64,000 nt of DNA from Pseudaquidulcibacter saccharophilus (lineage in GTDB: Bacteria > Pseudomonadota > Alphaproteobacteria > Caulobacterales > Aquidulcibacteraceae), in contig NZ_JAHWUS010000002.1 in assembly GCF_019455445.1 (NCBI RefSeq), positions 1-64,000 on the forward strand, in the 5' to 3' direction. A program made the position numbers and the translations under genes. The notes under the pieces were generated by a model that made no database searches, was not told where the DNA came from, and worked only from the letters and a program-made list of their open reading frames with translations. Positions 11,696 through 30,097 of this stretch are shown here, piece by piece (within the stretch, counting starts at the first letter, position 1; every line of letters starts with the position of its first letter).

Positions 11696-12901
11696 ATGAC
11701 AAATTTAATTTCGGTTATAATTGCCAATTATAATTCGGCGTGTTTTATCGAGGAAACAGTAAACAGCATTATTGAGCAAACTCATAAAAATATCGAAATT
11801 ATTATTGTTGACGATATCTCAAGCGATAACAGCATCGATGTCATCACAAAATTGCAATTAAAGCATCCTGAAATCACGCTTTGTGTAAACAAAGTTAATG
11901 GTGGCCCGGCATTCACGCGCAATAATGGCTTTGCCAAAGTGAAAGGGGATTGGGTCGCGATTGTTGATTCTGATGACATAATCCACAAAGACCGCTTTAA
12001 ACGTCTATTAGATTTTGCCACAAAGCAGGGTGCGGATATCGTTGCCGATGATTTATTGCATTTCTATGAAAAAACCAATGAAATCAATTTTTTGCTTGAG
12101 GAAAAGAAGTATTGCACCCCCTATAAAGTAGAGGCTGCGGAATATATCCTTTCAAATTCTACACGAAGTGGCTTGCCGGTTATGGGGTATCTAAAGCCGT
12201 TTTTCCGGCGGGAATTGCTTGAGAAATATTCATATAATCAGGATCTTATAATCGCCGAAGATTATGACTTTTTATTGCGAATGCTGCTTGATGGTAAACA
12301 GTTTTGGATATTGCCAGAGCCATTATATTTCTATCGCAAACATTCAAATTCCATATCATATCGCCTTTCAGAGGGGACGATTGATAAAATGATTTCCGCG
12401 CAAAATCAGCTGCTTGCAACAATTGGAAGTCAGAATAATGAAATAATGGCGGCTTTCAAATATCGTGAAAAATCTTTGTTGCGGGATTTGTATTTTCAAT
12501 CATTAATTACCGCAATAAAACGACCAAAACCTTTGCGGATAATTGGTCTTATTTTTGCGAAACCTGTGATTCTAATTGATTTGTATAATTCTGCGGCTTC
12601 TGGTCTTTTAAGAAGAATAAAGGAATTTTTTGCCAAATTTGATTTTGTTGTTGACCGTGTAAATCGGATTAAAATTAGACGCCAAAGAAAAGTGATTAAT
12701 TCATCGGGTAATAAATATGATTTGGCAAATCCTGAAGCAATAGATTTCTCAGATAATTTTTTGCTAAAAGCTTATTTAAAGCTAGTAAATTTGGTAGGCA
12801 TTGATAAATTTAAAAATCAAAAGGGGCGGGATAAGCTTTATGATTATTTCCGCTGGTCGGCACAGGCGCGCGGAATTACAGAATTAAAGGACAAGATTTG
12901 A
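11696..12901 (+). CDS. Glycosyltransferase family 2
   Basis: This 401-residue protein begins MTNLISVIIANYNSACFI. It has the nucleotide-binding IIVDDISSDNS, the G-G-P-A-F-T-R-N-N-G block and the metal motif D-S-D-D in AIVDSDDII; this is a GT2 catalytic domain in the first 220 residues. The C-terminal about 150 residues are helical and basic, perhaps membrane-proximal. I used the ATG at 11696 because the GT2 beta-strand starts immediately after it; a TTG at 11648 would add 16 residues without family support. The stop overlaps the TTG start of the next GT2 gene by 3-4 bases, so the two are translationally coupled. Confidence 0.87.
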   Translation: MTNLISVIIANYNSACFIEETVNSIIEQTHKNIEIIIVDDISSDNSIDVITKLQLKHPEITLCVNKVNGGPAFTRNNGFAKVKGDWVAIVDSDDIIHKDRFKRLLDFATKQGADIVADDLLHFYEKTNEINFLLEEKKYCTPYKVEAAEYILSNSTRSGLPVMGYLKPFFRRELLEKYSYNQDLIIAEDYDFLLRMLLDGKQFWILPEPLYFYRKHSNSISYRLSEGTIDKMISAQNQLLATIGSQNNEIMAAFKYREKSLLRDLYFQSLITAIKRPKPLRIIGLIFAKPVILIDLYNSAASGLLRRIKEFFAKFDFVVDRVNRIKIRRQRKVINSSGNKYDLANPEAIDFSDNFLLKAYLKLVNLVGIDKFKNQKGRDKLYDYFRWSAQARGITELKDKI

Positions 12902-13845
12902 CAACGGTAACTGTTATTATTGCTGCCAAAAATGCGTCACCTTATATTCGGCGTGCAATTACTTCTGCGCTGGGTGACAAATATATCAAAGAAATTATTG
13001 TTGTTGACGATGGCTCAAGCGATAACACTTCGCAAATTGTCGAAGCCATGATGGCACAAAATGATATAATCCGCCTTATAAAGAATCCAAAAAGCCTTGG
13101 ACCTTCTGCGGCACGCAATGCAGCTATCAAGCAAAGCAAATGTGAATATATATCGATTTTGGATGCCGATGATTACTTCCTTGAGAATCGCTTTGAAAAA
13201 TTCTTCAATTGCCAAGATTGGGATATAATCGCCGACAATATAATTTTTTTTGAGGCAGGGCGTAATGTCGAAATCCCCCAATATGATTCTAGTGGGGTTT
13301 TGACGTTAAATCTGGCGGAGTTCATTGATAATAATATAAGTAAATATGGCAAAAATCGCAAAGAATGGGGCTTTTTGAAGCCTGTGATAAGAAAGCAGTT
13401 TTTACTTGATCATAATATAAAATATGATGAAGCAGTCAAACTTGGTGAAGATTTTGACATTTATTGCCGGCTTTTAATTGCCAATGCACGCTTTAAAATA
13501 CTGAAAGAGTGTGGCTACGCCGCTGAAGTTCGCCCAAATTCGTTAAGCGCCAGCCATAATTCAGCACATCTTTTGGGGCTTTTGAATGTTTATAAAAATC
13601 TGGATGGGCAGATAAAAGATAAAGATGCCGCAAAGGTCCTTAAAACTGCGCTTTATAGACGTAATAAAGCTTATCAACTTGCCAAATTCCTAGAAGAAAA
13701 AAACGAAAAGGGTTGGGGCTTTGCCCTTAAAAGTCTTGCAGGTAATGCGGTGATGTTTGTCGATGTTATCGTAACACTTATACTTTTGAAAATCCCATTG
13801 TTTCGTCATACCGGCACAAGCCTGCATGGGCAAATTCTTATTTAA
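12898..13845 (+). CDS. Glycosyltransferase family 2
   Basis: This 315-residue GT2 enzyme starts MTTVTVIIAAKNASPYIRR. It carries VVDDGSSDNT, the GPSAARNAA block and the D-A-D-D metal motif in SILDADDYF. The start is TTG at 12898; AAAGG lies seven bases upstream and the codon overlaps the stop of the preceding GT2 gene. Its own stop (13843-13845) overlaps the stop codon of the convergent lasso-cluster ABC transporter, leaving no room for a separate terminator between the EPS and lasso operons. Confidence 0.88.
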   Translation: MTTVTVIIAAKNASPYIRRAITSALGDKYIKEIIVVDDGSSDNTSQIVEAMMAQNDIIRLIKNPKSLGPSAARNAAIKQSKCEYISILDADDYFLENRFEKFFNCQDWDIIADNIIFFEAGRNVEIPQYDSSGVLTLNLAEFIDNNISKYGKNRKEWGFLKPVIRKQFLLDHNIKYDEAVKLGEDFDIYCRLLIANARFKILKECGYAAEVRPNSLSASHNSAHLLGLLNVYKNLDGQIKDKDAAKVLKTALYRRNKAYQLAKFLEEKNEKGWGFALKSLAGNAVMFVDVIVTLILLKIPLFRHTGTSLHGQILI

Positions 13846-15557
13846 TTTTGCAATTGCCTTTTTATATTGCCGTTTTCAATCTCATAGACTTCATCAGCTA
13901 TATCGAGCAATTTATGATTATGGGTAATCAATAATATAGAGGTGTCATCCTTTAATTGCGCAATTGTTTCGGTAAGTTTGCGGGTGTTTTCCACATCCAA
14001 CGCGCTTGTAAATTCGTCGAGAATTAAAAGTTTTGGATTTCGCAAAAGGGCGCGTGAGATTGAAATTCTTTGCCGTTCGCCGCCCGATAATCTTATTGCG
14101 CCTTCACCAATTTTGGTTTCGATTCCGTTTGGTAGGTTGTCAACAAATTCATTGGCGCTGGCTTTTATTAATGCCTGCTCAAGTTCTTCGTCTGTGGCAT
14201 CTGGCTTGGCAATCAAAAGGTTATCACGCACGCTTGCCGACATAATGAAGGTATCTTGTGGTACATAGCTTACTTGCGTGCGCCACGCCTTGAATAGATT
14301 TGGCGTTAATGGCATGCGATCAATAATAATTTCCCCCTTGGTAGGAACCATAAGCCCCATAAGAAGGTCCACAAATGTGCTTTTACCGCTTCCCGATGGG
14401 CCAATTAATGCGGTGATTTTTCCGCCCATAATATTTAGATTTACGTTATTTAAAACGGTCCCTGCGCCATAATCAAAACTTAAATCTTTGAAAATAATAC
14501 GGTCATTATAAACAACTTCTGTATTATCATCTTCATTTATATTTTCTTTGTGGCTTTCAAAATATTTGATAATGCTAATAATTTCTGTAAAGGCAGCGAC
14601 GTTTAAAAGCAGGTTTTGTATTTGATTTTGTATTTCACTAAATCGCGGCGCAATTCGCATGAATATTAACAATAATAACAATAATTTAGTGAAATTTATG
14701 TGGAAAATTGCATATGCGACATAGGTGAAAATACATGCAAAGCCGGCGGTTATTGCACTGCTTAGCATGCTTCCATTTGATGATACGCGTGTTGTGTCGA
14801 TGGTTATGTCTTTTAATGTCGCAAGATTATTTGCAAATGTACCAACAAATTGATTTTCCGCATTATAGCTTTTGGTGACTTTTATACCGTCCAAAAAATC
14901 ACCAATAGTACGAAATTGTTTGCTATATTCTTCTGATAATTTACTGCCGATTTTGGCGGTATATTTGCGGAACGGGCTTTGAATTGCAAATGCAATGACC
15001 CCAAATACAATTGCTGTAAGCGTCATTTTTACAGAGATTATCATTGATAAAACAAGATATGCAAATAGGAAAAATGAACTTTGCACAATCATCAAAAGGC
15101 TGGCGAATGCGGCATGTGTGCGGTTGATTTCGCCATTTAACTTATGCTCAATATCGGTGTTCTTATAAATTCCAAGTGCCGACCATTTCGCATTGGCAAT
15201 GCTTTTAAATAAATCAATCCGTAATTTGTTTACTAAATCGGTAATCAGTTCAATCATAAAGATTGATCTGTGCCGCATTAACAGTGCACCAAAAAGAACC
15301 ACTATGAAATAGAATGATAAGATGTGCCATAATGCAAAATTAAATTCATGCCCGGCAATTACAGTCGAAAAATTATCGGTTTGTGATGTCCCATTGGCTA
15401 TTTGGTTTTTACTTAACACCCCAAGCAACGGCAGCAATAAGAATACAGATAAGTTTTCCGTAACGCCATTGGCAATAATAAAAAATATGACCTGAATTGT
15501 CTTACTTTTGGCATTTGAATAAACATAGTTCGCCATATCCAAAATCGGGCGATACAT
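13842..15557 (-). CDS. Lasso-peptide cluster ABC exporter (TMD-NBD fusion, D protein)
   Basis: This is a half-size ABC exporter of about 571 residues. Six membrane segments fill the first about 330 residues. The ATPase domain has Walker A GPSGSGKST at 386-394, signature LSGGERQ at 490-496, Walker B KLLILDEFTSALD and H-loop LLITHNH. It is the last gene of the minus-strand lasso operon, and D-type exporters in lasso clusters move the mature peptide out and often give self-immunity. I chose the ATG at 15557, which leaves 28 bases after the kinase stop; a TTG at 15653 would overlap the kinase by 68 bases and lacks support. A generic MsbA-like lipid exporter is the alternative, but the operon position favours peptide export. 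Confidence 0.85.
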   Translation of the reverse strand: MYRPILDMANYVYSNAKSKTIQVIFFIIANGVTENLSVFLLLPLLGVLSKNQIANGTSQTDNFSTVIAGHEFNFALWHILSFYFIVVLFGALLMRHRSIFMIELITDLVNKLRIDLFKSIANAKWSALGIYKNTDIEHKLNGEINRTHAAFASLLMIVQSSFFLFAYLVLSMIISVKMTLTAIVFGVIAFAIQSPFRKYTAKIGSKLSEEYSKQFRTIGDFLDGIKVTKSYNAENQFVGTFANNLATLKDITIDTTRVSSNGSMLSSAITAGFACIFTYVAYAIFHINFTKLLLLLLIFMRIAPRFSEIQNQIQNLLLNVAAFTEIISIIKYFESHKENINEDDNTEVVYNDRIIFKDLSFDYGAGTVLNNVNLNIMGGKITALIGPSGSGKSTFVDLLMGLMVPTKGEIIIDRMPLTPNLFKAWRTQVSYVPQDTFIMSASVRDNLLIAKPDATDEELEQALIKASANEFVDNLPNGIETKIGEGAIRLSGGERQRISISRALLRNPKLLILDEFTSALDVENTRKLTETIAQLKDDTSILLITHNHKLLDIADEVYEIENGNIKRQLQN

Positions 15558-15585
15558 TCCAATTTTACTATGTGGATTGCCTTTA

Positions 15586-16473
15586 TTATCTGCCAATATC
15601 TTCCCGCACCAATTCAATAGTTTCCTGTATTCTGTCGATATATGCAGGAACAATAAGTTTTTTTACCAAGCCGTTTTTGGCAACTTCGACCGATTTTTTC
15701 ATCACATCAGCAGAGAAACCGCCACCCATGGCATCCCTTTGGTAATAGTATGAAAACCGCATCATTGCTTCAAAACCGTCTTTAACCGAATAATCAATTA
15801 TTTGGGCTTTTTCACCACGTTCCAAAACGTAAGTTCGCCCTAATTTTAAGGCTTCTGACGCAAAATGCGTGCCAAGGCCTAATTGTTGTTTTTCGAGACC
15901 TGGGAATTCAATTTTGGGCAATAAATCCCCAAAACTTAGGTCAATATTGGCAAGCAAATCATCGGTAACTTTCATTTGTGGAAAGCCGGATAAAATCTTG
16001 AAACCATCTTCAAAATTAATTGGCATGACATCGTCGGTAATTAGGTTATAGCCTTTGGAGATGAAGGCGGCAGACGTTGTAGATTTTCCGGCCCCTTTGT
16101 CGCCCATAAAACCAACTGCGAGGCCGTCCATCTCGATTGCATTTGCGTGCATCACTAGATTGCCTCTAAGCTGCAGTATAAGGCCCATAACCATTCCCAT
16201 AAGTGGGTATATTACCAGCTCTTCTGGGCAATCGTACATTTCAACAAAAACTTCACTGGCATTGCGAATGTGGAATTTGGCAACAATCGTAAAGTCTAAA
16301 TATTGCTCATCTGGCGAGAAATACCATGGACAATTGCCAATACGTTCAAGAAAAGTGGGGTCAATTACTGATTTGTGAACGGTAATATCGTGGGGTTGTT
16401 GATTGCATTCTATCAAACCATCGAGTTTGAAATCCGATGCAATTATGAGGTTATACGCCTTATAGTAATACAT
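15586..16473 (-). CDS. HprK-like lasso-peptide kinase (K protein)
   Basis: This 295-residue protein shows the HPr kinase/phosphorylase-type P-loop GDKGAGKST at residues 124-132. It is preceded by the H-A-N-A element (109-112) and followed by TDDVMPI with the acidic pair D147/D148. It lacks the HPr-recognition context of PTS kinases and lies directly after the asparagine-synthetase-like cyclase; its ATG follows the cyclase stop without a gap, and GAGGGG is the Shine-Dalgarno. Related kinases in lasso clusters, established for paeninodin, phosphorylate a C-terminal Ser of the precursor. I infer that it phosphorylates the only Ser in the predicted core. Homologous HprK-related proteins also occur in other PqqD-containing systems, so the substrate remains inferred. 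Confidence 0.83.
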   Translation of the reverse strand: MYYYKAYNLIIASDFKLDGLIECNQQPHDITVHKSVIDPTFLERIGNCPWYFSPDEQYLDFTIVAKFHIRNASEVFVEMYDCPEELVIYPLMGMVMGLILQLRGNLVMHANAIEMDGLAVGFMGDKGAGKSTTSAAFISKGYNLITDDVMPINFEDGFKILSGFPQMKVTDDLLANIDLSFGDLLPKIEFPGLEKQQLGLGTHFASEALKLGRTYVLERGEKAQIIDYSVKDGFEAMMRFSYYYQRDAMGGGFSADVMKKSVEVAKNGLVKKLIVPAYIDRIQETIELVREDIGR

Positions 16474-18348
16474 CTATTTCCCCTCTGCCTTGAATGAATC
16501 TAAAAAATAGCTAAGCGCGACCGCTTTCCAGATGTTTTGTAATAATCTATGCTCTTTAAACTTTTTGCCTCTAAATAACTTGGGCAATTCTTGTCTTAAT
16601 AATTTTGTATCAAGATAATTTTCAAGCATTTTATTGTTTTCTAGAATGTCTTCTATTTCTTTTGCGTGATGAACTTTTAGGCCATTATTAATATGTACTG
16701 AAAAATCGAGTTTGGTTTTACGCCATTGTATTTTTTCTGGCAAAATGCCGTCCATGGCGTTGCGCATTATCAGGCGCGTCCATTCCTCATCCATGCTCTC
16801 TTCGGCACCAAGAGTAACACAAAATTCAATCAATCGTTTGTCATAAAATGGCATCCTTAGCTCAACACCACTTTTTGCCGCAAGAAATTCAAGGCTTTCG
16901 GTAACTATCGTAAAGAACTGGGAATTAAAATAATTTACGCGCGAATCCTGCTCACTATCGGCGGGGGTTTCATGCACAATTGGTTTTTGAAAAGCATAGC
17001 CTTTTTTGAAATAAACACTTACAGGCTTGTTAAATAGGTTGATTAGTTTGTGATATAAGCGCCCAAGTTTATAACTGCCTTTAAAGCCAGAATAACGTAA
17101 GAAGAGGGGGATAAACATCTCCAGGCGCGATTCCGCGAATAAGCCCGATGCCGCCTTAGTGGTTTTCCAAAGTTTGCGCCATTGTTTGGCTTTGGCCAGT
17201 TCAAAAAGGCGAACATTACCAAAAGCAATCACTTCGTCACCACCAGAGCCATCCAATATAACATCAAACCCTTGTTCATTTATTTTTTTATAAAATATTG
17301 CATTCATGGCTTGCCCAGGGGCAAAAACAAGTTTTTTTGAGGTGCTTATTAAATCATTCACACCTTCTAAGGATGGGTAATTATCAAATGCAATAAAATG
17401 CGGGTTAAAATGACCATTGTTTACAAGTGCTTCAATATATTCACGCTCACTTAATTGGGGCGTTTTGTCAAAGACAATTGAAAAAGTATCAAGTTTTGCA
17501 TCTGAATTACGCTCTTTTATAATTGCTGCGCATGCTGATATTGATGAGGAATCAAGACCACCACTGACAAGACTTGCAACCGGTTTTGCCCCGCGTATTC
17601 GGCATTCAACAGCTTGAAAAAACAACTCTTTCAATTTTTGGGTTTTATCAATTGTTTCATCAACATCTGGTGGGCGTTTTAATTGCCAATATTTTGTTAT
17701 TTGCAAACCATTTTTCGGTGAAAAGCAAAGATAGCTTCCGCCATCAAGGCGTAATATATTTCCAAAAGTTACACTTTGTGTCTCAATTAAAAGTGATTGG
17801 GCAAATGCATATATTTGGTCAGGATCAACATCAGAAAGGCCAAGGTCTTGAAATGGTTTGCCTGGCGCAATTAATGATCTTAAATCACTAGAGACAAGGA
17901 AGCCATTATCGTCATGCCGAAAGAATAATGGCTTTAGGCCTAAATGATCGCGGAACGCATAAAGGCAGTTTTGTTTAGTATCGACAATTATCACTGAAAA
18001 ATCACCGACAATATGTGAAACAAAATCAACGCCCCATTTCAAATAGGCTTGTAAAAATAATTCGCCTTCAGAAATTTTATTTTTTTTGATTTTAAGGGCG
18101 GCGATTAATTCGTCACGGTTATCAATACGTGCATCACAGCTAAGATATATTTCATCATTGCTGAAAATTTTTGGTTTTTGCGGGTCTTCTGGTAGGCGGC
18201 GAGTATATGCAAGCCCAAGCCCATGTTTACCAATTTCTATTGTGGCGTTTCCGTCTTTGGCGCGATAATTTTGGGCTTCTAATAGATTGTTTAAAACCGC
18301 GTTGGTCTGTTTTTTATCTTTAAGGTATGTACCAACAACCCCACTCAT
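16474..18348 (-). CDS. Asparagine-synthetase-like lasso macrolactam cyclase (C protein)
   Basis: This 624-residue protein has an N-terminal glutaminase-like half and a C-terminal ATP-pyrophosphatase half with the P-loop SGGLDSS at residues 262-268. The N-terminus reads MSGVVG: Ser2 replaces the catalytic Cys2 of true AsnB (normally MCG), so glutamine hydrolysis is not expected. That substitution and the flanking PqqD/transglutaminase-like genes mark it as a lasso C protein, which adenylates an Asp/Glu side chain of the core and closes the macrolactam with the core N-terminus. The ATG at 18348 is four bases past the B2 stop, with a GGGA ribosome site. An asparagine-synthesis role is unlikely. 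Confidence 0.88.
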   Translation of the reverse strand: MSGVVGTYLKDKKQTNAVLNNLLEAQNYRAKDGNATIEIGKHGLGLAYTRRLPEDPQKPKIFSNDEIYLSCDARIDNRDELIAALKIKKNKISEGELFLQAYLKWGVDFVSHIVGDFSVIIVDTKQNCLYAFRDHLGLKPLFFRHDDNGFLVSSDLRSLIAPGKPFQDLGLSDVDPDQIYAFAQSLLIETQSVTFGNILRLDGGSYLCFSPKNGLQITKYWQLKRPPDVDETIDKTQKLKELFFQAVECRIRGAKPVASLVSGGLDSSSISACAAIIKERNSDAKLDTFSIVFDKTPQLSEREYIEALVNNGHFNPHFIAFDNYPSLEGVNDLISTSKKLVFAPGQAMNAIFYKKINEQGFDVILDGSGGDEVIAFGNVRLFELAKAKQWRKLWKTTKAASGLFAESRLEMFIPLFLRYSGFKGSYKLGRLYHKLINLFNKPVSVYFKKGYAFQKPIVHETPADSEQDSRVNYFNSQFFTIVTESLEFLAAKSGVELRMPFYDKRLIEFCVTLGAEESMDEEWTRLIMRNAMDGILPEKIQWRKTKLDFSVHINNGLKVHHAKEIEDILENNKMLENYLDTKLLRQELPKLFRGKKFKEHRLLQNIWKAVALSYFLDSFKAEGK

Positions 18349-18352
18349 AACA

Positions 18353-18742
18353 TTATCCCATATCCATCAATGATTTATATTTGGCAAGCTGACCTTCTTC
18401 ATTGCCAAGGATAATGGTTTCTCCAGACATAAGCCAGGCGTGGGCGTTTAATTTCCCAGAATCATCTTTATAAACACCGATTCTAATGGTTGAGGTGTAG
18501 CCTTTGTTTTTTAATGCGGCGCGTCCAGCAAGTGCACGTGACAAGCATGTTGCGCCAAAAACAAAGCGTGAGGTTTTGAAAATCATTCTGCCAACCCACT
18601 TTGCATAGCTTTCTGGGGCTATGTTTCCAAATTGGTCGCCTTTGATTTTAATATTCTCAAATGTATTGAAAACAATAAATAATCGATAATAGATATTTAG
18701 GGATGTGAATTTAAGCACTGAGATAAAATTTTTAAAGTCCAT
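18353..18742 (-). CDS. Lasso-peptide leader peptidase, transglutaminase-like (B2 protein)
   Basis: This 129-residue protein matches the transglutaminase-like B2 family. The nucleophile is Cys66 in FGATCLSRALAGRAALK and the catalytic His is H101 in LNAHAWL. The Asp usually found about 12 residues after the His is not obvious; the local sequence is ILGNEEG, so Asn114 or Glu115 may stand in for it. B2 proteins cut the leader from the core, working with the leader-binding B1 protein. I placed the start at the ATG at 18742, one base after the B1 stop and preceded by AGGCGG, rather than the TTG at 18772 inside B1. Confidence 0.85.
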   Translation of the reverse strand: MDFKNFISVLKFTSLNIYYRLFIVFNTFENIKIKGDQFGNIAPESYAKWVGRMIFKTSRFVFGATCLSRALAGRAALKNKGYTSTIRIGVYKDDSGKLNAHAWLMSGETIILGNEEGQLAKYKSLMDMG

Positions 18743-18743
18743 T

Positions 18744-19034
18744 TCAGACCGCCTGCTGTGAAACCTCAACAAGTCCGAAATTTGACAGGTCGTTGAGAAT
18801 TTTGATTAAATCATTCTCTATAATCTCTGCTTTTACATCATATTGTTCTAATAACTTTTCTGTCAAACTTGCAACCTTTGTAGGTTCCGCAATATTTGCC
18901 CAGATAAAATTTGTTGTACCGTTCAGGTTGAAATAACTTCCAGATTTAAGATCCAGCAAAGCTGCGCCAGAATCAAGTTCACACACCACAACATCTTTTG
19001 ATGCGCACACAACAGTCTCTGCATTAATCTCCAA
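18744..19034 (-). CDS. PqqD-like leader-peptide recognition protein (lasso B1)
   Basis: This 96-residue protein has the PqqD/RRE fold pattern: VVVCELDSGAALLDLKSG followed by SYFNLNGTTNFIW, then a helical C-terminus ending NDLSNFGLVEV. RRE-type proteins bind the RiPP leader through a beta-strand and deliver it to the peptidase and cyclase. The start is TTG at 19034, supported by GGAG seven bases upstream. It lies between the precursor gene and B2, as expected in split-B lasso clusters. A PQQ-cofactor role is rejected because no PqqA, PqqC or PqqE is nearby. Confidence 0.87.
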   Translation of the reverse strand: MEINAETVVCASKDVVVCELDSGAALLDLKSGSYFNLNGTTNFIWANIAEPTKVASLTEKLLEQYDVKAEIIENDLIKILNDLSNFGLVEVSQQAV

Positions 19035-19080
19035 GTAGTTACTCCGTTTATTATAAGCCGTTAAAGCTTATGATTATAGG

Positions 19081-19110
19081 TCAGGGTTGGGGGATTATGC
19101 CCAACCCTGA
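19081..19110 (-). promoter_or_regulatory. Intercistronic hairpin between lasso precursor and B1
   Basis: This is a perfect 11-base-pair stem (TCAGGGTTGGG at 19081-19091, CCCAACCCTGA at 19100-19110) with an 8-base loop. It lies 9 bases after the precursor stop and about 46 bases before the B1 start. No T-run follows on the minus strand, so it is more likely an attenuating or 3'-end-protecting hairpin than a full terminator. It would raise the amount of precursor transcript relative to enzymes. Confidence 0.75.
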
Positions 19111-19119
19111 AAGCCCATA

Positions 19120-19272
19120 TTAGTTTGAAAATGTAAGTTGATCTTTTGGAGTTTTTGGAGGGAATACAGCATCTGTATAAGTGCCGTCGCCCGCAGCCAA
19201 AGTAACTGAACCAAAATCACCTACTTTTTCGATAGAAGGTGCTTCATAAGCAATTTTTGAATTGGTAACCAT
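19120..19272 (-). CDS. Lasso-peptide precursor (A peptide), 50 residues
   Basis: A strong ribosome site (AAGGA, eight bases upstream) precedes ATG 19272. The leader is MVTNSKIAYEAPSIEKVG followed by DFGSVTL. It matches the lasso leader pattern Y-x2-P-x-[LI]-x3-G-x5-T with Y9, P12, I14, G18 and T24. With the conserved Thr at -2, the core starts at Ala26: ring AAGDGTYTD, tail AVFPPKTPKDQLTFSN. Asp34 is core position 9, the right place for a nine-residue macrolactam between the Ala1 amine and the Asp9 side chain. The core resembles paeninodin (Ala1, Asp9, Ala10, Pro-rich tail). By my own addition the unmodified cyclic core is about 2622.3 Da, and one phosphate would add 79.97. The only Ser is the penultimate residue. 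Confidence 0.88.
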   Translation of the reverse strand: MVTNSKIAYEAPSIEKVGDFGSVTLAAGDGTYTDAVFPPKTPKDQLTFSN

Positions 19273-19293
19273 CGATTTTTTCCTTGTTTAAGA

Positions 19294-19312
19294 TGGCGGG
19301 ATAATCCCACCA
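19294..19312 (-). promoter_or_regulatory. 5' leader hairpin of the lasso operon
   Basis: An 8-base-pair stem with a three-base loop (TGGCGGGA at 19294-19301, TCCCACCA at 19305-19312 on the plus strand, one G-U wobble in the minus-strand RNA) sits immediately upstream of the AAGGA ribosome site of the precursor. It could stabilise the 5' end or modulate access to the ribosome site. Confidence 0.5.
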
Positions 19313-19353
19313 TTAGTAATTGCACCATAACGGTGAAATTTAATCAATCATTA

Positions 19354-19383
19354 ACTATAAACTTTATATGAATTTTTTGTGAA
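19354..19383 (-). promoter_or_regulatory. Candidate sigma70-type promoter of the lasso operon
   Basis: Read on the minus strand, TTCACA (19378-19383) is separated by 18 bases from TATAGT (19354-19359). Both are one mismatch from the sigma70 consensus. Transcription from here would give a leader of about 75 bases containing the hairpin at 19294-19312. The region is AT-rich, so chance matches are possible. Confidence 0.35.
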
Positions 19384-19957: not shown

Positions 19958-21073
19958 TTGAAAATATTATATCTGGTTCATGATTTGAATGACGCTGCGG
20001 TGGCAAAGCGTACCACAATGTTTAAAGCAGGACGCGCAGATATATTAATTGCCGGTTTTCGGCGTGGTCAGGAAGTTGTATCTAATATAAATGGTAATGT
20101 TCCAATTAATTTGGGGCAGACTTTTAATGGTAAGTTTTTTCAAAGAATAAAATTAGCAATAACAAAATTCGGATTTTTAAAATCCCAAATCGGGCAGGGG
20201 CGTTTTGATGTCATTGTTGCCCGTAATTTAGAAACCTTGGGGATTGGTTATTATCTTTTAAAGGCTGGTTATGCCGATAAGTTGGTTTACGAATGTCTTG
20301 ATATTCATAAGATGATGCTAAGGGGTGACTTTATTGGTAAGGTATTACGCTTTATTGAGCGGCACTTTTTAAAAAAATGCGATGCAATAATGACAAGTTC
20401 ACCCGCGTTTATCGAAAACTATTTTTCTGCACTTCAAAAGGTTACTAACAGGGTTATTTTGCTTGAAAATAAGGTTTTTAATGAAAAACCTTTGGGTGCA
20501 AAAATTGCAAAAATAAATAAAACTTATGCAAACCCTTTGCAAATTGGCTGGTTTGGGGTTTTACGTTGTAAAAAATCGCTTAAAATACTTTCCGAATTTG
20601 CGTTAAATATGAAAGGCGCGGTTGAGATTATTCTGCGTGGTAAGCCTGCATATGAAATTATGACTGATTTCGATGAAGTTGTTGCGCAAAACCCTTATCT
20701 AAAGTTTTGTGGCCCTTATAAAGCGCCAGATGATTTATATGATATATATAATGAGGTTAACTTTACCTGGGCGATAGATTTTTATGAGGAAGGACAAAAT
20801 TCGAAATGGCTTTTGCCAAACCGACTATATGAGGGGTGTTTGTATAAAAGCATCCCAATAGTACAGGATGGAACCGAAACCGCAAATTATTTAAATAAAT
20901 TGGGAATTGGCATTATGTTAGAAGATGTTTCACCTAACTCATTGGCGAAACTTTTTACAAATTTGGATGCTAATGTTTATAATAATCTACAAACGAAACT
21001 GATGAATGTGGATCCAAAATGCTTTATTGCGGACGAGGGGGATTGCATAAGTTTGATCAGGGATTTGAATTAA
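19958..21073 (+). CDS. Glycosyltransferase family 4-like
   Basis: This 371-residue GT-B type glycosyltransferase has an N-terminal Rossmann half that begins MKILYLVHDLNDAAVAKRT, with an I-V-A-R-N-L-E-T-L block. A linker TSSPAFIENYF follows, then a C-terminal donor-binding half with IGWFGVLRCKKSL and the KWLLPNRLYEG region. It resembles the GT4 enzymes of EPS loci that act on a lipid-linked acceptor. The start is TTG, with GGAAG seven bases upstream. Its stop is six bases before the ExoA-like gene, so this begins an operon of four plus-strand genes reaching 24403. Confidence 0.8.
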   Translation: MKILYLVHDLNDAAVAKRTTMFKAGRADILIAGFRRGQEVVSNINGNVPINLGQTFNGKFFQRIKLAITKFGFLKSQIGQGRFDVIVARNLETLGIGYYLLKAGYADKLVYECLDIHKMMLRGDFIGKVLRFIERHFLKKCDAIMTSSPAFIENYFSALQKVTNRVILLENKVFNEKPLGAKIAKINKTYANPLQIGWFGVLRCKKSLKILSEFALNMKGAVEIILRGKPAYEIMTDFDEVVAQNPYLKFCGPYKAPDDLYDIYNEVNFTWAIDFYEEGQNSKWLLPNRLYEGCLYKSIPIVQDGTETANYLNKLGIGIMLEDVSPNSLAKLFTNLDANVYNNLQTKLMNVDPKCFIADEGDCISLIRDLN

Positions 21074-21079
21074 AACAAA

Positions 21080-22081
21080 ATGACAATTAAAAAGAATGAA
21101 GAATTAAAAGACACATTAATAATTATTCCTTGTTTAAATGAGGAAGCCCATATCGCACATTTATTGGAATGGCTAACTTCTGAATATCAAGATAAAGGGG
21201 CAACAATTATCGTTGCCGATGGCGGTAGTACGGACAGCACGATTACGATTATTAAAGATATCGCAAGCCGTAATCCATCGCTTAAATATCTTCATAACCC
21301 TAAAAAACTACAAAGTGCGGCGGTTAATCTTGCGGTTAAAGAATATAGTAACGGCAAAAAATATTTAATTCGTATTGATGCGCACTCAAAATATCCCAAA
21401 GATTATTGTAGCAAATTAATTGAAGAAGCAGAAAAAATTGATTGCGATTCAATTACTGTTTCAATGCTATCGATTGGTAGTGATGGGTTTCAGATGCTTG
21501 CTGCATTGGCGCAAAACTCCAAACTTGGGAATGGTGGTTCTGTTCATCGCCTTTTGTCAGAGGGCCAATATGTTGACCACGGGCACCACGCGTTAATGAA
21601 GATTGAGGCGTTTAGTGCGGTTGGTGGCTATGATGAAACTTATTCACATAATGAAGATGCCGAACTTGACATAAGGCTTCGTCAGGCAAACTTTAAGATT
21701 TGGCACACTGCGACAACCTTCATTGAATATTTCCCGCGCGATAATCCCGCACGGCTTTTCCGCCAATATGTTTCATATGGTAAGGGGCGTGCCAAAAGCT
21801 ATCTAAAGCATAAGTATAAGCTTAAATTACGACAATTATTACCAATAATGGTTTTTCCTGCGGCAGTTTTGGCTCTAATTGGTGTTTTCACTAATATTAT
21901 TCTGGCTTTGCCATTTGTTTTATGGTTATTGGCAAGCGTTTTATTGGCATTGGATCTTGCAATTAAAGAAAAGAAAATAGCTGGGTTCTTTGCAATATTT
22001 CCTGCTGTGATAATGCACTTTTCATGGTCATTTGGCTTCTGGGCGGGGCTGTTTTTAGAGAAACTAAAGAATGATAAATAA
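21080..22081 (+). CDS. ExoA-like glycosyltransferase family 2
   Basis: This 333-residue GT2 enzyme has IIPCLNEEAHI, VADGGSTDST, a D-A-H metal motif in LIRIDAHSKYP, and the conserved G-N-G-G-S block followed by the E-D-A-E-L-D-I-R-L-R motif. Two or three C-terminal membrane segments (about residues 255-325) complete the ExoA layout. In succinoglycan synthesis ExoA adds the first beta-1,3-glucose to the lipid-linked galactose made by ExoY, so this gene and the ExoY-like one probably act in consecutive steps. Its stop overlaps the start of the next GT gene by 11 bases. Confidence 0.85.
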   Translation: MTIKKNEELKDTLIIIPCLNEEAHIAHLLEWLTSEYQDKGATIIVADGGSTDSTITIIKDIASRNPSLKYLHNPKKLQSAAVNLAVKEYSNGKKYLIRIDAHSKYPKDYCSKLIEEAEKIDCDSITVSMLSIGSDGFQMLAALAQNSKLGNGGSVHRLLSEGQYVDHGHHALMKIEAFSAVGGYDETYSHNEDAELDIRLRQANFKIWHTATTFIEYFPRDNPARLFRQYVSYGKGRAKSYLKHKYKLKLRQLLPIMVFPAAVLALIGVFTNIILALPFVLWLLASVLLALDLAIKEKKIAGFFAIFPAVIMHFSWSFGFWAGLFLEKLKNDK

Positions 22082-23324
22082 CAAAGAACCAAAAACCTAT
22101 ATATTAACCAATCAACGGGTGTTTCGTTCCGAATCTGGCAGTACAAAATATTTACTAGGAATTGCATCATACTTGCATAATGCAGGATGCAAAATGAACC
22201 TTATTTATTGCTCAAAATCTATGTTTGGGCGTTTGCCGTTTTTTACCTTATCTGAAGAAATGAAAATTTTTGAAACCATTAGGGTACGTGAAGGCATTAA
22301 AATTGGTAATTTGGTTTTCACACTTAATCTAAAATCTTATTTTGATGCTTTTATTTATTTAACCGAACGGGTTTTGCAAAAGCTTAAAATAATAAAAGAA
22401 GGCTTTACAGAGCCTGCACCATATTCGGTTTCATACCCGTTATCGCAAAATGATATTAAATTTGTGGACGATATCATTGCAGGTGATGCCGATATTTTAA
22501 TTGCGGATTATTGCTATCTTACCAAGGCATTTCCCAAGCCAAGTGGCGGCTTCAACCCGCGCAAATATGTCGTAATGCATGACTTTATATCTCAAAGATT
22601 TGATGATTTTAAAGCATCTGGCACAAAAGAAAAAACCAGCTTCTTAACATTTGAAGATGAAATGGCATTGTTATCAAATGCTGATATTGTTATCGCAATT
22701 CAAAAAGAAGAGGCCGACAAGATAAAAAATGGGCTTCACGCCGGAACCGATGTCGTGGTTTGCCCGATTGCTGCCGATATATATGATAAATTTAATGCAA
22801 AAGACGCCAATAATGTTTTGTTTCTTGGTTCTGGTGCTGCGCCCAATGTTGACGGTATTTTGTGGTTCATTAGTGAGGTTTGGCCAAAGATAATTGAAAA
22901 AAATCCAAATGCCAGATTGAAAATTGCCGGCTCGGTTTGTTCAAAAATCAATGTCGATAACCCTACAATTGAATTAATGGGCATTGTTGACGATTTGGTT
23001 GGATTTTACCAATCAGGAAACATTGTTATTTCACCACTTAGATTGGGCTCTGGGTTAAAAGTAAAGCTTATTGAGGCCGCAGGGCATGCGAAGGCTGTTG
23101 TTGCTACCACAATCACACTTCAGGGCGTATATGACGAATTTAAAGATGCGCTTGTAATAGCTGATGAAGCAAATGATTTTGCAAATGCAATTATAAATCT
23201 GCTTGACGATAATAAAAAGCGTGAAATATTATCAGAAAATATACTTAATGTTGCTAAACAATATTTCTCTAATGAAGCAGTAAACCGCCCGTTATTGGAA
23301 GATTTATCTTTGCACATCAAATAG
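22071..23324 (+). CDS. Glycosyltransferase family 4
   Basis: This 417-residue GT-B glycosyltransferase has an N-terminal acceptor domain that starts with ILTNQRVFRSESGSTKYLL. The C-terminal nucleotide-sugar domain carries NVLFLGSGAAPNVDGILWF, the LRLGSGLKVKLIEAAGHAK motif (the E-x7-E equivalent region) and a C-terminal helix. The GSGLKVKLIE block is typical of GT4 proteins from EPS clusters. It overlaps the ExoA-like gene by 11 bases and is followed 20 bases later by the nucleotidyltransferase gene, so translation is probably coupled. Confidence 0.85.
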   Translation: MINNKEPKTYILTNQRVFRSESGSTKYLLGIASYLHNAGCKMNLIYCSKSMFGRLPFFTLSEEMKIFETIRVREGIKIGNLVFTLNLKSYFDAFIYLTERVLQKLKIIKEGFTEPAPYSVSYPLSQNDIKFVDDIIAGDADILIADYCYLTKAFPKPSGGFNPRKYVVMHDFISQRFDDFKASGTKEKTSFLTFEDEMALLSNADIVIAIQKEEADKIKNGLHAGTDVVVCPIAADIYDKFNAKDANNVLFLGSGAAPNVDGILWFISEVWPKIIEKNPNARLKIAGSVCSKINVDNPTIELMGIVDDLVGFYQSGNIVISPLRLGSGLKVKLIEAAGHAKAVVATTITLQGVYDEFKDALVIADEANDFANAIINLLDDNKKREILSENILNVAKQYFSNEAVNRPLLEDLSLHIK

Positions 23325-23344
23325 TATTTATTATTGGGGTTTTT

Positions 23345-24403
23345 TTGTACAATATCTGTGACTTAATTTTGGGGCATATTGAGGGGCAATCAATTAAAAA
23401 TGAATTGTTTGACGATGACGCCGCTTTGTCAGGTCTTATAAATATTGCCAGAAAGAATAAATTGCCATTGTTGTTACGCTCTGCGCTATTATCAATTGAT
23501 GGCGTTAAGGTGCCACAAGAACTGGAAAGCCTTTACCGCGCAACTTGTTTCACCAATATGCAACTTATTCACATGGCAAAATATATTAGTGGTGTCCTTA
23601 AACAAGAGGGGATTGACCACTTTTTTTATAAAGGACCATTGCAACAAAAAACGCTTTATGGAAACTTCTTTTCGAAACCTAGTGTTGATATTGATTTTAA
23701 TGTAAGGCTCAAGGATTTTTCCGCCGCTCGTGAACTGTTGATTAAAAATGGCTTCGAGCTACAAAATAGAACCCAAGGAATATGGTGGACTTATTTTTTG
23801 GGCGAACAAACTCTTTTCAATTACAAAATCACAAATCAATCAGTGGATATTCACCATCGCTTGCAGCAGCCCGGTGCACCACAACCACATAATTATGATT
23901 TTTTCTTTGAAAACAATGACTTTATAGAGTTTGGTGATATTTCATTACGGGTTTTAAACGTCAAACAGACGTTGGTGGTTGCTGCAATGAATATGATTAA
24001 AAGCCTGCTACACCGTGAACATATGGGGGGGCATGCGCTTGATATTATAATGTGCCTTCGTAAACTTGGTGCGGATGATATACGTGATCTAAAGCAAAGA
24101 TTACGTCAATATGGGCTTTATAATTCTGTTAGCATTTGTTCGCGAATGGCGTGTTTATTATTTAAGATCAGCGATAATTTCAATGATACCGAGATTGAGA
24201 TCGCTTATGATGAAAAAAATCTATATGAGGTTATGATTGCAAATCCGCAAAACATCAAGCTTCATCCAAAGCGCAAATTATTCATGATGAAATTATGTGA
24301 TGACAAGGGTGGGCAATATTTTAAAGAACTAATCCGACTTATTGCCTCGGATACCGCCCACTTTGTTCTGCATGGAAATGAAACGAGCATTAAAAACGAT
24401 TAA
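23345..24403 (+). CDS. PF14907-type nucleotidyltransferase family protein
   Basis: This 352-residue protein has the nucleotidyltransferase pattern of the PF14907 family: FFYKGPLQQKTLYG (K96-G97) followed by the metal-binding D-x-D in SVDIDFNVRL (D115, D117), and a later VDIHHRL segment. The start is TTG with GGGG five bases upstream. Such proteins occur in some lasso clusters, where a homologue has been linked to sugar or nucleotide-type tailoring, and also in EPS-linked PqqD/HprK-related systems. Here it lies 4 kb from the lasso operon, on the opposite strand, at the end of a GT operon. It may act on the lasso peptide or on the polysaccharide. Confidence 0.75.
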   Translation: MYNICDLILGHIEGQSIKNELFDDDAALSGLINIARKNKLPLLLRSALLSIDGVKVPQELESLYRATCFTNMQLIHMAKYISGVLKQEGIDHFFYKGPLQQKTLYGNFFSKPSVDIDFNVRLKDFSAARELLIKNGFELQNRTQGIWWTYFLGEQTLFNYKITNQSVDIHHRLQQPGAPQPHNYDFFFENNDFIEFGDISLRVLNVKQTLVVAAMNMIKSLLHREHMGGHALDIIMCLRKLGADDIRDLKQRLRQYGLYNSVSICSRMACLLFKISDNFNDTEIEIAYDEKNLYEVMIANPQNIKLHPKRKLFMMKLCDDKGGQYFKELIRLIASDTAHFVLHGNETSIKND

Positions 24404-24415
24404 TGCCCGTTTTTC
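24382..24415 (+). terminator. Intrinsic terminator of the GT4-ExoA-GT4-nucleotidyltransferase operon
   Basis: A 12-base-pair stem with one mismatch (AACGAGCATTAA at 24382-24393, TTAATGCCCGTT at 24400-24411) is followed by TTTT. It overlaps the last codons of the nucleotidyltransferase gene and ends just before the convergent ExoP-like stop. Confidence 0.75.
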
Positions 24416-24419
24416 ATTA

Positions 24420-26570
24420 TTAATTCTTCAAATAACGTAGATACTCGTCACTCTTGTAATATGAGCCTTCTTTGTGGCCATAATAGCTTGATTGACGGTA
24501 ATTAACCTGGGTAAGAACCAAGCCAGCAAGGTTTGCATTTGAATCTTCAATAATGTTTGCCGCAGCACTTGTGGCACGTTTTGGTGTCTTTCGCCAACGT
24601 GACAATAGAATTGTTGCATCAGCCAATTTAGTCAATGGACGGCTATCTGAAACCGGAAGCAAAGGTGCGGTATCAAAGATAATAAGGTCATAGCGGCCTT
24701 TTAAAACTTCAATTGCTTTTTTCATGCCTTCAGAGCCAAAAATATCACGTGCGGTCGCAGAGCCTTCTGACATCAGGATATAATCAACACCAGTTTTGTC
24801 ATGTTGTATGATTTCATCAAGAGACGCATCATTGTTCAAATATTCAAGCAAACCTGCCTGCGGGCGTGAAGCAACAGTAGAACTTAGCGATTGTCTTCTG
24901 ATATCACAATCCACAACTAAAACAGACTGACCAGACAATGCGGCAACGGTCGCCATACAAATTGAAGTCGTTGTTTTACCTTCTTTCGGGAACGCAGAAG
25001 TGATAGCAACAGTTTTTACGGATTCACCGGCCTTGGAATACAAAATTGTTGCACGCAAAGAACGGAAACCTTCAGCAAATGTTGAAAGCGGGTTTTGGAT
25101 AATATAATCGCGCGGCGTGCCTTTAAACTTGCTCATAAGTTTAAGGGTTGAGCGAAGGTCATAGATACTGCCAAGGTATTGAATGCCAAGTTTTTGTTCA
25201 ACATCATTTGCAGAATTTATGCCAACATCAAATAATTTGCGGATTATGAAATAAACCAAACCTGCAAATATACCACACATTATGCCAAGTAGGATTACAA
25301 GTGATTTAATAGGTGAACTAGGGCGGCTTGGAACAGCTGCATTTGAAACTATTCTCGCATCGGCCTTGATACCGCCTTCACGAGCCGCGATTTCTTTGGA
25401 TTTATCCAAATAAGTCTCATAAAGAGTTTGTGCAGAGTTCGCCTGTGTTTGTAAATTGTTCAATTGGCTTGCGTATTGGTTGTTATGCGCCAAAGTTGAT
25501 TGGGCGTTTGCCAATGCGCTTTGCATAGATGCTAGCTTATCACGTTTAACAATATACTGCCCATATAAGTCATTTACGATACGGTTGGTTTCAGCATTGA
25601 TGTTTTTATCAATTACAATAACCTTCTGCGAGGCTTCCATATATTTAGGGTGTTTAGGGCCATAACGTGTTGCAAGGCTTGCAAGATCAGATGCTGCTTC
25701 GGCACGTCTTGTTTTAAGGCTTTGAATAACGCTTGAATCAAGTGCGTCCGAACCATTAGCCATACTTCTGCCAGATGTAGCTTTGGCAACTTCCCAACGT
25801 GATTTTGCTTCGGCAGCTTCAGAAGAAAGTTGTGCAACTTGCTGCGAATACAAGGAAATATCTTGCTCAATCATTCTGATGCCATCAGGGCTTCTTAGTT
25901 GATTAGAAAGCTTAAAGTTTTCCAAAGTTTCTTTGGCAGCAAAAGCCTGATCGCGAAGTTTGCTTTCGTTTTGTGAAACTAGCAATTTAGCATTATTGGT
26001 TGCGACCAATTTTGCATCCAATTGTTGTTCGATATATAGGCGCGCCCACTCATTCGCAATTCGTGCCGATTTTTCAGCAGAAAGTGAATTATAATTGATA
26101 TCGATAACGCGGGTTAAGCCAACACGTTTAACCAAAAGTCCAGCTAATACACGGTTTACAACGCGTTCTTTCAATAATTGAGAGTTTGCATTCTGTGCAG
26201 CAGTACCCGCATATTGACCTGCAAATTCTGGATCGTCATATAATCTAAGTGAATTTATTACGGCTTCGGCAATTGACGAAGATTTTAAAACCTCAACCTC
26301 GGTATCAACCTGCGCGGTGTCGGTAGGCAAACCAGATACAACTGAATCATTGGTAAGTTCGTTATAAGGTCTTGGATCAATGATGATTGATGATGTCGCA
26401 GTATATCTTTTAGGTGCTTGAAGATTGGGAACGATTACCGCAACCGCCACAATTGCAGAGATAAGCAATATAGACGCCAAAAAGCGCATAAAATCAGCAA
26501 ACAAAGACCCTAAATCAAAGGGCGATATCATCGGCAGATTTTCGTCAACAGTATCTTGTTTTCTTATCAT
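24420..26570 (-). CDS. ExoP/Wzc-like polysaccharide co-polymerase and tyrosine autokinase
   Basis: This is a protein of about 716 residues. A Wzz-type domain between two membrane segments (near residues 30-50 and 425-445) holds a long periplasmic coiled coil. The BY-kinase domain has Walker A FPKEGKTTT (around 527-535), Walker A' VLVVDCDIRR and Walker B LIIFDTAPLLPVSD. The C-terminal 26 residues contain seven Tyr (YRQSSYYGHKEGSYY, then Y-L-R-Y), the expected autophosphorylation cluster. It controls EPS chain length and export. I used the ATG at 26570; a GTG at 26615 would add 15 residues without a ribosome site. It is downstream of the Wza-like and beta-barrel genes. Confidence 0.9.
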   Translation of the reverse strand: MIRKQDTVDENLPMISPFDLGSLFADFMRFLASILLISAIVAVAVIVPNLQAPKRYTATSSIIIDPRPYNELTNDSVVSGLPTDTAQVDTEVEVLKSSSIAEAVINSLRLYDDPEFAGQYAGTAAQNANSQLLKERVVNRVLAGLLVKRVGLTRVIDINYNSLSAEKSARIANEWARLYIEQQLDAKLVATNNAKLLVSQNESKLRDQAFAAKETLENFKLSNQLRSPDGIRMIEQDISLYSQQVAQLSSEAAEAKSRWEVAKATSGRSMANGSDALDSSVIQSLKTRRAEAASDLASLATRYGPKHPKYMEASQKVIVIDKNINAETNRIVNDLYGQYIVKRDKLASMQSALANAQSTLAHNNQYASQLNNLQTQANSAQTLYETYLDKSKEIAAREGGIKADARIVSNAAVPSRPSSPIKSLVILLGIMCGIFAGLVYFIIRKLFDVGINSANDVEQKLGIQYLGSIYDLRSTLKLMSKFKGTPRDYIIQNPLSTFAEGFRSLRATILYSKAGESVKTVAITSAFPKEGKTTTSICMATVAALSGQSVLVVDCDIRRQSLSSTVASRPQAGLLEYLNNDASLDEIIQHDKTGVDYILMSEGSATARDIFGSEGMKKAIEVLKGRYDLIIFDTAPLLPVSDSRPLTKLADATILLSRWRKTPKRATSAAANIIEDSNANLAGLVLTQVNYRQSSYYGHKEGSYYKSDEYLRYLKN

Positions 26571-26737
26571 TTCCAACTCTTCTGTACCGTCCTGATAATC
26601 CACACGGATTACCACACTAAATTTGTCTGGACACTTACTATTTCTATTTAGTTAATCGCAATTATAACGACTGAATAGCAATACAATCTGCCCGTTTTTT
26701 ATCGCAATATGCCAACATTAAGTCACTTTTTGACTTT

Positions 26738-27994: not shown

Positions 27995-28057
27995 TAGATA
28001 TACCCTAGTAACAAATCCGTTTAAATCGCAGGATGTTGTTTGAAATTATATTAAACC

Positions 28058-28957: not shown

Positions 28958-28991
28958 TACCAATATCCCCATCACCAATTTATACTTTTAG

Positions 28992-29759: not shown

Positions 29760-29828
29760 AATTCGATTATAAACCAAAAATAAAACACATAATTACCATA
29801 TTAAAAAAATTGCAGCAAATTTTTCAAG

Positions 29829-29866: not shown

Positions 29867-29974
29867 AATTTCCGCCTAATTAGACAATAGTAATTTATAA
29901 AATAAAAGAATTTAATAACGCATATCTAAGCTTTATAAAAAAGTGTAATTCTGCTCACCCTAAAATTTAACAAT

Positions 29975-30000: not shown

Positions 30001-30007
30001 TTGATTA

Positions 30008-30097
30008 TGGCGGACAGGGTGGGATTCGAACCCACGGTAGACTTCCACCTACGGCGGTTTTCAAGACCGCTGCCTTAAACCGCTCGGCCACCTGTCC
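30008..30097 (-). tRNA. tRNA-Ser, anticodon TGA
   Basis: This is a 90-nucleotide type II tRNA on the minus strand. The 5' acceptor strand GGACAGG pairs with CCTGTCC, the discriminator base is G and a CCA end is encoded. The anticodon stem-loop GCGGTCTTGAAAACCGC gives anticodon TGA (reads UCA and related Ser codons). A long variable arm (GTAGGTGGAAGTCTACC) and the T-loop GGTTCGAATCC are present. Confidence 0.95.

What the first reader, a model, noticed from the sequence alone, without database searches (positions are those of the whole stretch)
13842..19383. Lasso-peptide biosynthetic operon A-B1-B2-C-K-D embedded in an EPS locus
Six consecutive minus-strand genes encode a 50-residue precursor with the canonical lasso leader pattern, a PqqD-like leader binder, a Cys/His transglutaminase-like peptidase, an asparagine-synthetase-like cyclase with Ser2 in place of Cys2, an HprK-like kinase and an ABC exporter. 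Gene order and tight spacing fit a single operon. Kinase-containing (paeninodin-type) lasso clusters are a known class. One inserted between exopolysaccharide glycosyltransferase genes in an AT-rich alphaproteobacterium looks new to me, but I could not search.
Basis: partly seen in the sequence, partly recalled or inferred. Interest (0 to 1): 0.92.

Follow-up and report, generated by a model that had tools for sequence, protein, structure and literature searches.

The report
Lasso-peptide operon in a sugar-coat island
A real, intact set of genes for making a knotted, probably phosphorylated peptide sits inside a block of sugar-coat genes that close relatives lack; distant relatives keep the same partnership, but here the peptide has one extra residue just past the spot that is normally phosphorylated.

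Summary
The operon is real: A, B1, B2, cyclase C, HprK-like kinase K and exporter D are intact and in order. It belongs to a known kind, kinase-type (paeninodin-like) lasso clusters. Added here: (1) The sugar-coat setting is no one-off. In Alphaproteobacteria this operon type travels with an NTP_transf_5 nucleotidyltransferase (79 of 80 named loci; window 23345-24403, the only copy in the genome) and with polysaccharide genes; 12 kinase-free lasso loci show none among their commonest neighbours. One relative fuses the nucleotidyltransferase to a homologue of the window's glycosyltransferase next to D. PMC13381572 reports such a setting in Bacilli; my ten searches listed no report for Alphaproteobacteria. 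(2) The block (at least 29 kb) lies beside tRNA-Ser and is not found there in the stretches read of four genus-mates, whose genomes gave no B2 or K match. (3) All 86 relatives of this operon type end in Ser, the family's known phosphorylation site; the window's peptide alone ends Ser-Asn, though its kinase keeps its catalytic residues. Verdict: new variant of a known kind.

The parts
19120..19272 (-). A: lasso precursor, 50 aa; leader 1-25, core 26-50 AAGDGTYTDAVFPPKTPKDQLTFSN; predicted ring Ala1-Asp9; Ser24-Asn25 at the C-terminus
   Evidence: NF033521 over cut-off; aligns with precursors of 86 related loci, Asp9 in register by eye
19030..19125 (-). A-B1 intergenic hairpin, perhaps setting the ratio of A to the enzymes
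   Evidence: fold -34 kcal/mol, z -4.76; 12 of 12 relatives tested also fold below their shuffle mean, z -1.8 to -4.9
18744..19034 (-). B1: PqqD-like leader-binding protein
   Evidence: PF05402 56 bits
18353..18772 (-). B2: leader peptidase (Cys76, His111 in the listed ORF); likely start ATG 18742
   Evidence: NF033537 over cut-off; Cys and His invariant in 6 aligned proteins
16474..18348 (-). C: lasso macrolactam cyclase (Asn synthetase-like), Ser2, intact SGGLDS
15586..16473 (-). K: HprK-like precursor kinase; His109, Lys130, Asp147, Asp148 intact
   Evidence: model with PEPCK/HprK-like fold
13842..15653 (-). D: ABC exporter; likely start ATG 15557
23345..24403 (+). N: NTP_transf_5 nucleotidyltransferase-fold protein, probable further tailoring enzyme; only copy in the genome
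   Evidence: PF14907 90 bits, single in genome; linked to this operon type
12898..13845 (+). GT2 glycosyltransferase, convergent with D and overlapping its stop; possible tailoring partner of N
   Evidence: PF00535 103 bits; homologue over 50 bits in 69 of 80 named loci; fused to N in L138/L206
481..12901 (.). left part of the polysaccharide locus: GH16, priming sugar transferase, Wzy, GTs, Wzx, pyruvyl transferase
19958..29777 (.). right part of the polysaccharide locus: GT-like 19958, GTs 21080 and 22071; N; Wzz/tyrosine kinase 24420; BBP2 26738; Wza-like 28058; phosphoesterase 28992
30008..30097 (-). tRNA-Ser(TGA), right border of the island; sister genome G003 is similar only down to 29963

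Best explanation
An acquired island beside tRNA-Ser carries a polysaccharide locus and, inside it, a kinase-type lasso operon. B1 binds the leader, K phosphorylates the linear precursor near its C-terminus, B2 cuts after Thr24-Leu25, C closes the Ala1-Asp9 lactam around the tail, and D exports the product. N (23345-24403), perhaps with the GT2 at 12898-13845, probably adds a further group to the phosphate, as the nucleotidyltransferase of pseudomycoidin does. Because the peptide carries one Asn after the conserved Ser, either K here tolerates Ser24-Asn25, or the Asn is trimmed, or this lineage has lost the usual phosphorylation. I take 'K acts on Ser24' as somewhat more likely, since K and N look intact. 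Shown: gene content, order, linkage, absence from the genus-mates, intact catalytic residues, the exception at the C-terminus. Inferred: lasso fold, phosphorylation, roles of N and the GT2, any link to the polysaccharide.
For: Family hits for A, B1, B2, C, K, D. Order B1-B2-C-K-D in 83 of 84 window-type loci by stop positions; the other, L055, has B1-B2-C-K and ends at its contig end before D. The Paracoccus plasmid has the same order, the Sulfitobacter plasmid has D in front. C-terminal Ser in 86 of 86 of these precursors. N over 50 bits in 79 of 80 named loci; the miss, L113, starts at a contig end with A only about 420 bases in. In 385 Alphaproteobacteria, N (E 1e-10) occurs in 20 of 21 genomes with K (E 1e-25) against 55 of 364 without, p = 1e-14 without correction for kinship. 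Polysaccharide families flank 12 kinase-type loci. In L138/L206 N is one 743-745 aa ORF with a GT2 domain that is a 200-bit relative of window 12898-13845. Genus-mates: B2 in 0 of 4, K in 0 of 4. Passages read: C-terminal Ser phosphorylation on the linear precursor and nucleotidyltransferase-dependent hexose addition (PMC9266682, PMC8498205).
Against: No product is known. C and K score below their curated cut-offs. C departs at 5 of 31 otherwise invariant positions, equal to the most deviant relative, and D at 5 of 57, equal to two others. The Ser that the family's kinases use is not terminal here. N is 4 kb away with three genes between, so its membership is by analogy. N also occurs without K (55 genomes). 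The relatives share descent: 65 of the 80 named loci are Mesorhizobium; at 60% kinase identity 15 distinct relatives remain. The fusion is seen in one assembly from a metagenome only.
Confidence: 0.65

Rival explanations
1. The lasso peptide is made but no longer phosphorylated: the extra Asn blocks K, and K and N are on the way out or act on something else.
For: Review text says the kinase specifically recognises the C-terminal Ser (PMC8498205). The window alone of 87 window-type precursors breaks that rule. A loss of one base in a TCA-TAA end would give TCA-AAC-TAA, so the change could be recent and unselected (inference).
Against: K keeps 18 of 19 positions invariant among representatives, the catalytic ones included; N keeps the invariant Lys96, Asp115, Asp117, His170. 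Neither looks decayed.
Confidence: 0.25
2. Assembly error at the stop codon: the true precursor ends in Ser and this is an ordinary family member.
For: One missing base is enough; no second genome of the species was found; every window-type relative ends in Ser.
Against: All six ORFs are intact, the genome is rated 100% complete in 12 contigs, and the site is not a homopolymer.
Confidence: 0.1
3. The polysaccharide setting is neutral: hypervariable sugar loci on islands simply collect RiPP clusters, with no functional link.
For: The genes next to the operon differ between lineages; no shared enzyme is proven.
Against: The 25 commonest of 38 families around 12 kinase-free lasso loci of the same order hold no glycosyltransferase. 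The setting spans Caulobacterales, Rhizobiales, Sphingomonadales, Rhodobacterales (orders recalled), a Butyrivibrio plasmid and, in part, a haloarchaeal plasmid, and is reported for Bacilli. N is fused to a GT2 once.
Confidence: 0.3
4. Not a lasso peptide: B1, B2, C act on another peptide or leave A linear.
For: C is below the curated lasso-cyclase cut-off.
Against: A has the lasso leader, Thr at -2 and an acceptor Asp at core position 9 in register with relatives; B2 is over its cut-off.
Confidence: 0.04

Closest known systems
Paeninodin-type phosphorylated lasso clusters (PadeK, ThcoK, SyanK)
   Same: A, B1, B2, C, D and an HprK-like kinase with the His-Lys-Asp-Asp residues; tailoring of the linear precursor expected
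   Different: Precursor ends Ser-Asn, not Ser; N lies 4 kb away; sits in a polysaccharide island of an alphaproteobacterium
Pseudomycoidin (psm) phosphoglycosylated lasso peptide
   Same: Kinase plus a nucleotidyltransferase in the neighbourhood
   Different: N is divergent from the operon and behind three other genes; product unknown; similarity of N to PsmN itself not tested
Paeninodin-like and LPP clusters in capsular polysaccharide loci of Bacilli (PMC13381572)
   Same: RiPP cluster with kinase and NTP transferase embedded in a polysaccharide locus
   Different: Other phylum; one RRE gene; no signal peptidase noticed among the window genes scanned
Bradymonas bsf cluster (BsfK, PMC10368454)
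   Same: Kinase and nucleotidyltransferase, and a precursor that does not end in Ser
   Different: BsfK acts on core Ser3; the window core has Gly3 and no Ser in the predicted ring; Thr at leader -2 is kept here
Asticcacaulis endophyticus locus (L051/L068)
   Same: Among the nearest relatives for the lasso proteins and N, with homologues of the GTs at 19958 and 21080 and Wzz genes beside
   Different: Lasso proteins only 37-40% identical, N 33%; gene blocks rearranged; precursor ends LTFS

Membership tests
Lasso peptide biosynthetic cluster | Precursor with YxxPxLxxxG leader, Thr at -2, Asp/Glu at core 7-9 | tested here: met
   NF033521 over cut-off; sequence
Lasso peptide biosynthetic cluster | B1, B2 and cyclase C beside the precursor | tested here: met
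   C under its curated cut-off
Lasso peptide biosynthetic cluster | Threaded lactam product | not testable with these tools
   needs expression and MS
Paeninodin-type (kinase) lasso cluster | HprK-like kinase with His, P-loop Lys and Asp-Asp | tested here: met
Paeninodin-type (kinase) lasso cluster | C-terminal Ser on the precursor | tested here: not met
   ends ...LTFSN; 86 of 86 window-type relatives end in Ser
Phosphoglycosylated lasso (pseudomycoidin-like) | Nucleotidyltransferase gene with the cluster | tested here: inconclusive
   PF14907 gene 4 kb upstream, single in genome; PsmN itself was not fetched or compared
Phosphoglycosylated lasso (pseudomycoidin-like) | Hexose on phosphoserine | not testable with these tools
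   needs MS
Isopeptidase/TonB-type proteobacterial lasso cluster | Isopeptidase and TonB receptor beside the cluster | tested here: not met
   none among the window genes scanned; S9 peptidases and TonB receptors are common in the control loci

The most novel reading that the evidence does not exclude
Kinase-N lasso operons of Alphaproteobacteria make peptides that are joined through a Ser phosphate to sugars of the co-encoded exopolysaccharide, so that the island builds a lasso-decorated polysaccharide; in the window lineage the link has moved from a terminal to a penultimate Ser.
Probability: 0.1. Interest if true: 0.9.

Novelty: new variant of a known kind. Interest (0 to 1): 0.52.

Why it matters
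PMC13381572 states that the biological roles of paeninodins are unknown and that their place in capsular loci of Bacilli is only suggestive. A similar kinase, nucleotidyltransferase and polysaccharide partnership in distant Alphaproteobacteria, once on a 42-kb plasmid and once with the nucleotidyltransferase fused to a glycosyltransferase, makes a role in the sugar coat a concrete hypothesis in bacteria such as Mesorhizobium, Paracoccus and Asticcacaulis. The Ser-Asn tail is a natural experiment on how these kinases read the C-terminus.

Tried and rejected
One-off insertion of a lasso operon into an EPS locus: rejected, because the linkage recurs and the block as a whole is missing from the genus-mates at this site.

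A second precursor in 19273-19957: none seen among ORFs of 40 aa or more. Known RNA families in 8000-30000: none at gathering score. Viral origin: no kinase relative in viral contigs with the one pattern used. A promoter at 19383: not above chance.

The first genome-contig scan with C alone found no relative; the kinase alignment worked (159 relatives, best 80 kept). The class-wide kinase search gave, apart from the window, loci of a different arrangement, most with K next to B1 or apart from the rest. There the C-terminal residue is mixed: many precursor candidates end in Ser, but L063 (...TAMM), L239 (...MAMP), L240 (...TPTV...GSTP) and the haloarchaeal L245 (...PAPT) do not, and for several loci none was recognised. 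So the Ser rule is claimed for the window type only.

Structure models of N and K are confident (pLDDT 91 and 90), but the fold matches only support a nucleotidyltransferase core for N (best hits FKRP, MenT1, ANT(2''); TM-score 0.30-0.37 on the query) and a PEPCK/HprK-like fold for K; they do not settle the reaction of N.
Full report
Observation. NCBIfam and Pfam name them lasso leader peptide, PqqD-like protein, lasso B2 protein, Asn-synthetase-like cyclase, HprK-like kinase and ABC exporter. The C and K matches lie below their curated cut-offs, but the key residues are there: SGGLDS in C, Cys76 and His111 in B2, His109, P-loop Lys130, Asp147 and Asp148 in K. The predicted mass of 2622.26 Da for a 25-residue core with one lactam is right. 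Between A and B1 lies a strong hairpin (z -4.76); 12 of 12 relatives tested fold below their shuffle means there too.

Relatives. The genome is a 2.84-Mb assembly in 12 contigs, and the window is the start of contig 5. A kinase alignment found 80 named loci: 65 Mesorhizobium, 4 Asticcacaulis, and Sphingomonas, Rhizorhabdus, Brevundimonas, Salinarimonas, Pseudaestuariivita, Porphyrobacter and three less closely named records (159 relatives existed, the best 80 were kept). All 80 carry B1, B2, C, K and D in that order and a recognisable precursor.

The tail. All 86 of these precursors end in Ser, 78 of them in LTFS. The window's ends LTFSN. Review passages say that kinases of this type modify the C-terminal Ser (PMC9266682, PMC8498205). 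In what I read, other sites are described for BsfK (core Ser3 of a precursor ending in Asp; PMC10368454) and for LppK of the linear LPP peptides (Ser3; PMC13381572). The window kinase departs at 1 of 19 invariant positions (residue 8) in a leave-one-out test over 16 representatives; other members depart at 0-3. So the kinase looks functional while its usual target is no longer terminal. A one-base loss in an ancestral TCA-TAA would explain the end (inference). An assembly error cannot be excluded.

The nucleotidyltransferase. The island holds an NTP_transf_5 protein at 23345-24403, the only one in the genome. A homologue over 50 bits lies within the fetched locus in 79 of 80 named loci; the miss, L113, starts at a contig end. 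With the Pfam model, 25 of 25 kinase-type genomes tested have it; by coordinates it falls inside the fetched locus in 21 of 21 named ones and next to the operon in G153 and G214, but it is 25 kb away in G026 and on another contig in G029. In 35 of the 37 lasso-positive genomes, a match over 90 bits occurs in 9 of 9 with a kinase and 0 of 26 without; 7 of the 26 have weak matches of 32 bits or less, and for G033 and G035 the kinase call rests on 19-bit matches. Across 385 Alphaproteobacteria it occurs in 20 of 21 genomes with the kinase (E 1e-25) against 55 of 364 without (E 1e-10; G461 is the miss; kinship is not corrected for, and weaker kinases count as absent). Pairwise distances of N follow those of C (rho 0.88), B2 (0.71), K (0.66), D (0.66) and B1 (0.44) over 12 taxa. 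In one relative (L138/L206, a metagenome-assembled alphaproteobacterium) N is the front part of a 743-745 aa ORF whose rear is a GT2 domain, a 200-bit relative of window 12898-13845. That gene sits tail to tail with D in the window, and homologues over 50 bits lie in 69 of the 80 loci. I therefore list it as a possible tailoring partner rather than only an EPS gene.

Polysaccharide genes. The window's neighbours form a polysaccharide locus: GH16, priming transferase, Wzy, several GTs, Wzx, pyruvyl transferase, Wzz with tyrosine kinase, Wza-like export protein. Among 80 flanking ORFs of 12 kinase-type loci, Pfam finds Glycos_transf_2 in 16, NTP_transf_5 in 10, GH16 in 6, sugar transferase in 4, Wzy_C in 4, Poly_export in 3. 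Among 100 flanking ORFs of 12 kinase-free lasso loci none of the 25 families shown (of 38) is a glycosyltransferase; S9 peptidases, the isopeptidase type (recalled), (10), TonB receptors (8), autoinducer-binding domains (8) and autoinducer synthases (5) lead. Homologues of the window's gene pair 19958 and 21080 recur beside Asticcacaulis, Pseudaestuariivita, Brevundimonas and Mesorhizobium microcysteis operons. A Paracoccus plasmid carries the operon among nucleotidyltransferase, GT, GH16, O-antigen ligase, sugar transferase and GNVR genes; Sulfitobacter, Butyrivibrio and haloarchaeal plasmids show related settings.

The island. In all four genus-mates the transporter at 30311-31981 sits beside tRNA-Ser(TGA) as in the window. 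In the nearest (G003, 93% DNA identity over the aligned part) similarity stops at 29963, just past the tRNA. No window protein left of it gave a tblastn match at 1e-8 in about 38 kb read beyond the tRNA in each of G003, G001 and G002, and in about 7 kb in G004. Whole-genome searches gave B2 in 0 of 4 and K in 0 of 4; the gene at 19958 has one faint match (20 bits) in G002 and none in the others, while the GT2 at 12898 has only part-length matches of 41 bits or less, as expected of paralogues. The block is poorer in G+C (0.31-0.40) than the DNA to its right (0.38-0.47). Its left end lies beyond the contig.

Literature. PMC13381572 (section 6 and passages) reports paeninodin-like lasso clusters embedded in capsular loci of Bacilli, names kinase and NTP transferase as typical, and says the roles are unknown. 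PMC7533575 (passages) notes kinases and glycosyltransferases with rumen clusters. PMC9266682, PMC8498205, PMC10368454 and PMC13352647 were seen in passages. Ten full-text searches showed no account of the alphaproteobacterial linkage in their listings; most subscription papers are not held, so this is weak evidence of absence.

Verdict. A true kinase-type lasso operon, part of a recurrent and mobile partnership with polysaccharide genes, with a one-residue tail that no window-type relative seen here shares. Ordinary as a lasso cluster, interesting as a test case for what phosphorylated lasso peptides do.

Noticed in passing
window 29963-30097: tRNA-Ser(TGA) marks the right edge of the polysaccharide and lasso island; the left edge lies beyond the contig start.
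   Followed up: partly
L206 14194-16425 (same locus as L138): One ORF joins an NTP_transf_5 domain to a GT2 domain beside a kinase-type lasso operon.
   Followed up: partly
L243 1-25887 (NZ_CP067230.1): A 41.8-kb Paracoccus plasmid holds a lasso-kinase-nucleotidyltransferase-polysaccharide block in the 25.9 kb read.
   Followed up: partly
L245 4213-11848 (NC_015658.1): Haloarchaeal plasmid of Halopiger xanaduensis with flippase, nucleotidyltransferase, a kinase-like match split over two annotated genes, and lasso C, B2, B1; a precursor-like ORF at 8920-9081 ends in Thr.
   Followed up: no
L056-L065, L215-L241: Divergent kinase-lasso loci of another arrangement are spread over Alphaproteobacteria; some precursor candidates do not end in Ser.
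   Followed up: partly
L072-L146: 65 Mesorhizobium genomes, one per species in the collection, carry the same operon type, most with cores ending FPAHTP..LTFS.
   Followed up: partly
window 19958-21073: Protein without a Pfam or NCBIfam match at the cut-offs used that recurs beside lasso operons in Asticcacaulis, Brevundimonas and others; perhaps a glycosyltransferase.
   Followed up: no
L147 3082-3333: Porphyrobacter MAG precursor with a different tail (LTCGPEDGMS) and Cys in the core, still ending in Ser.
   Followed up: no
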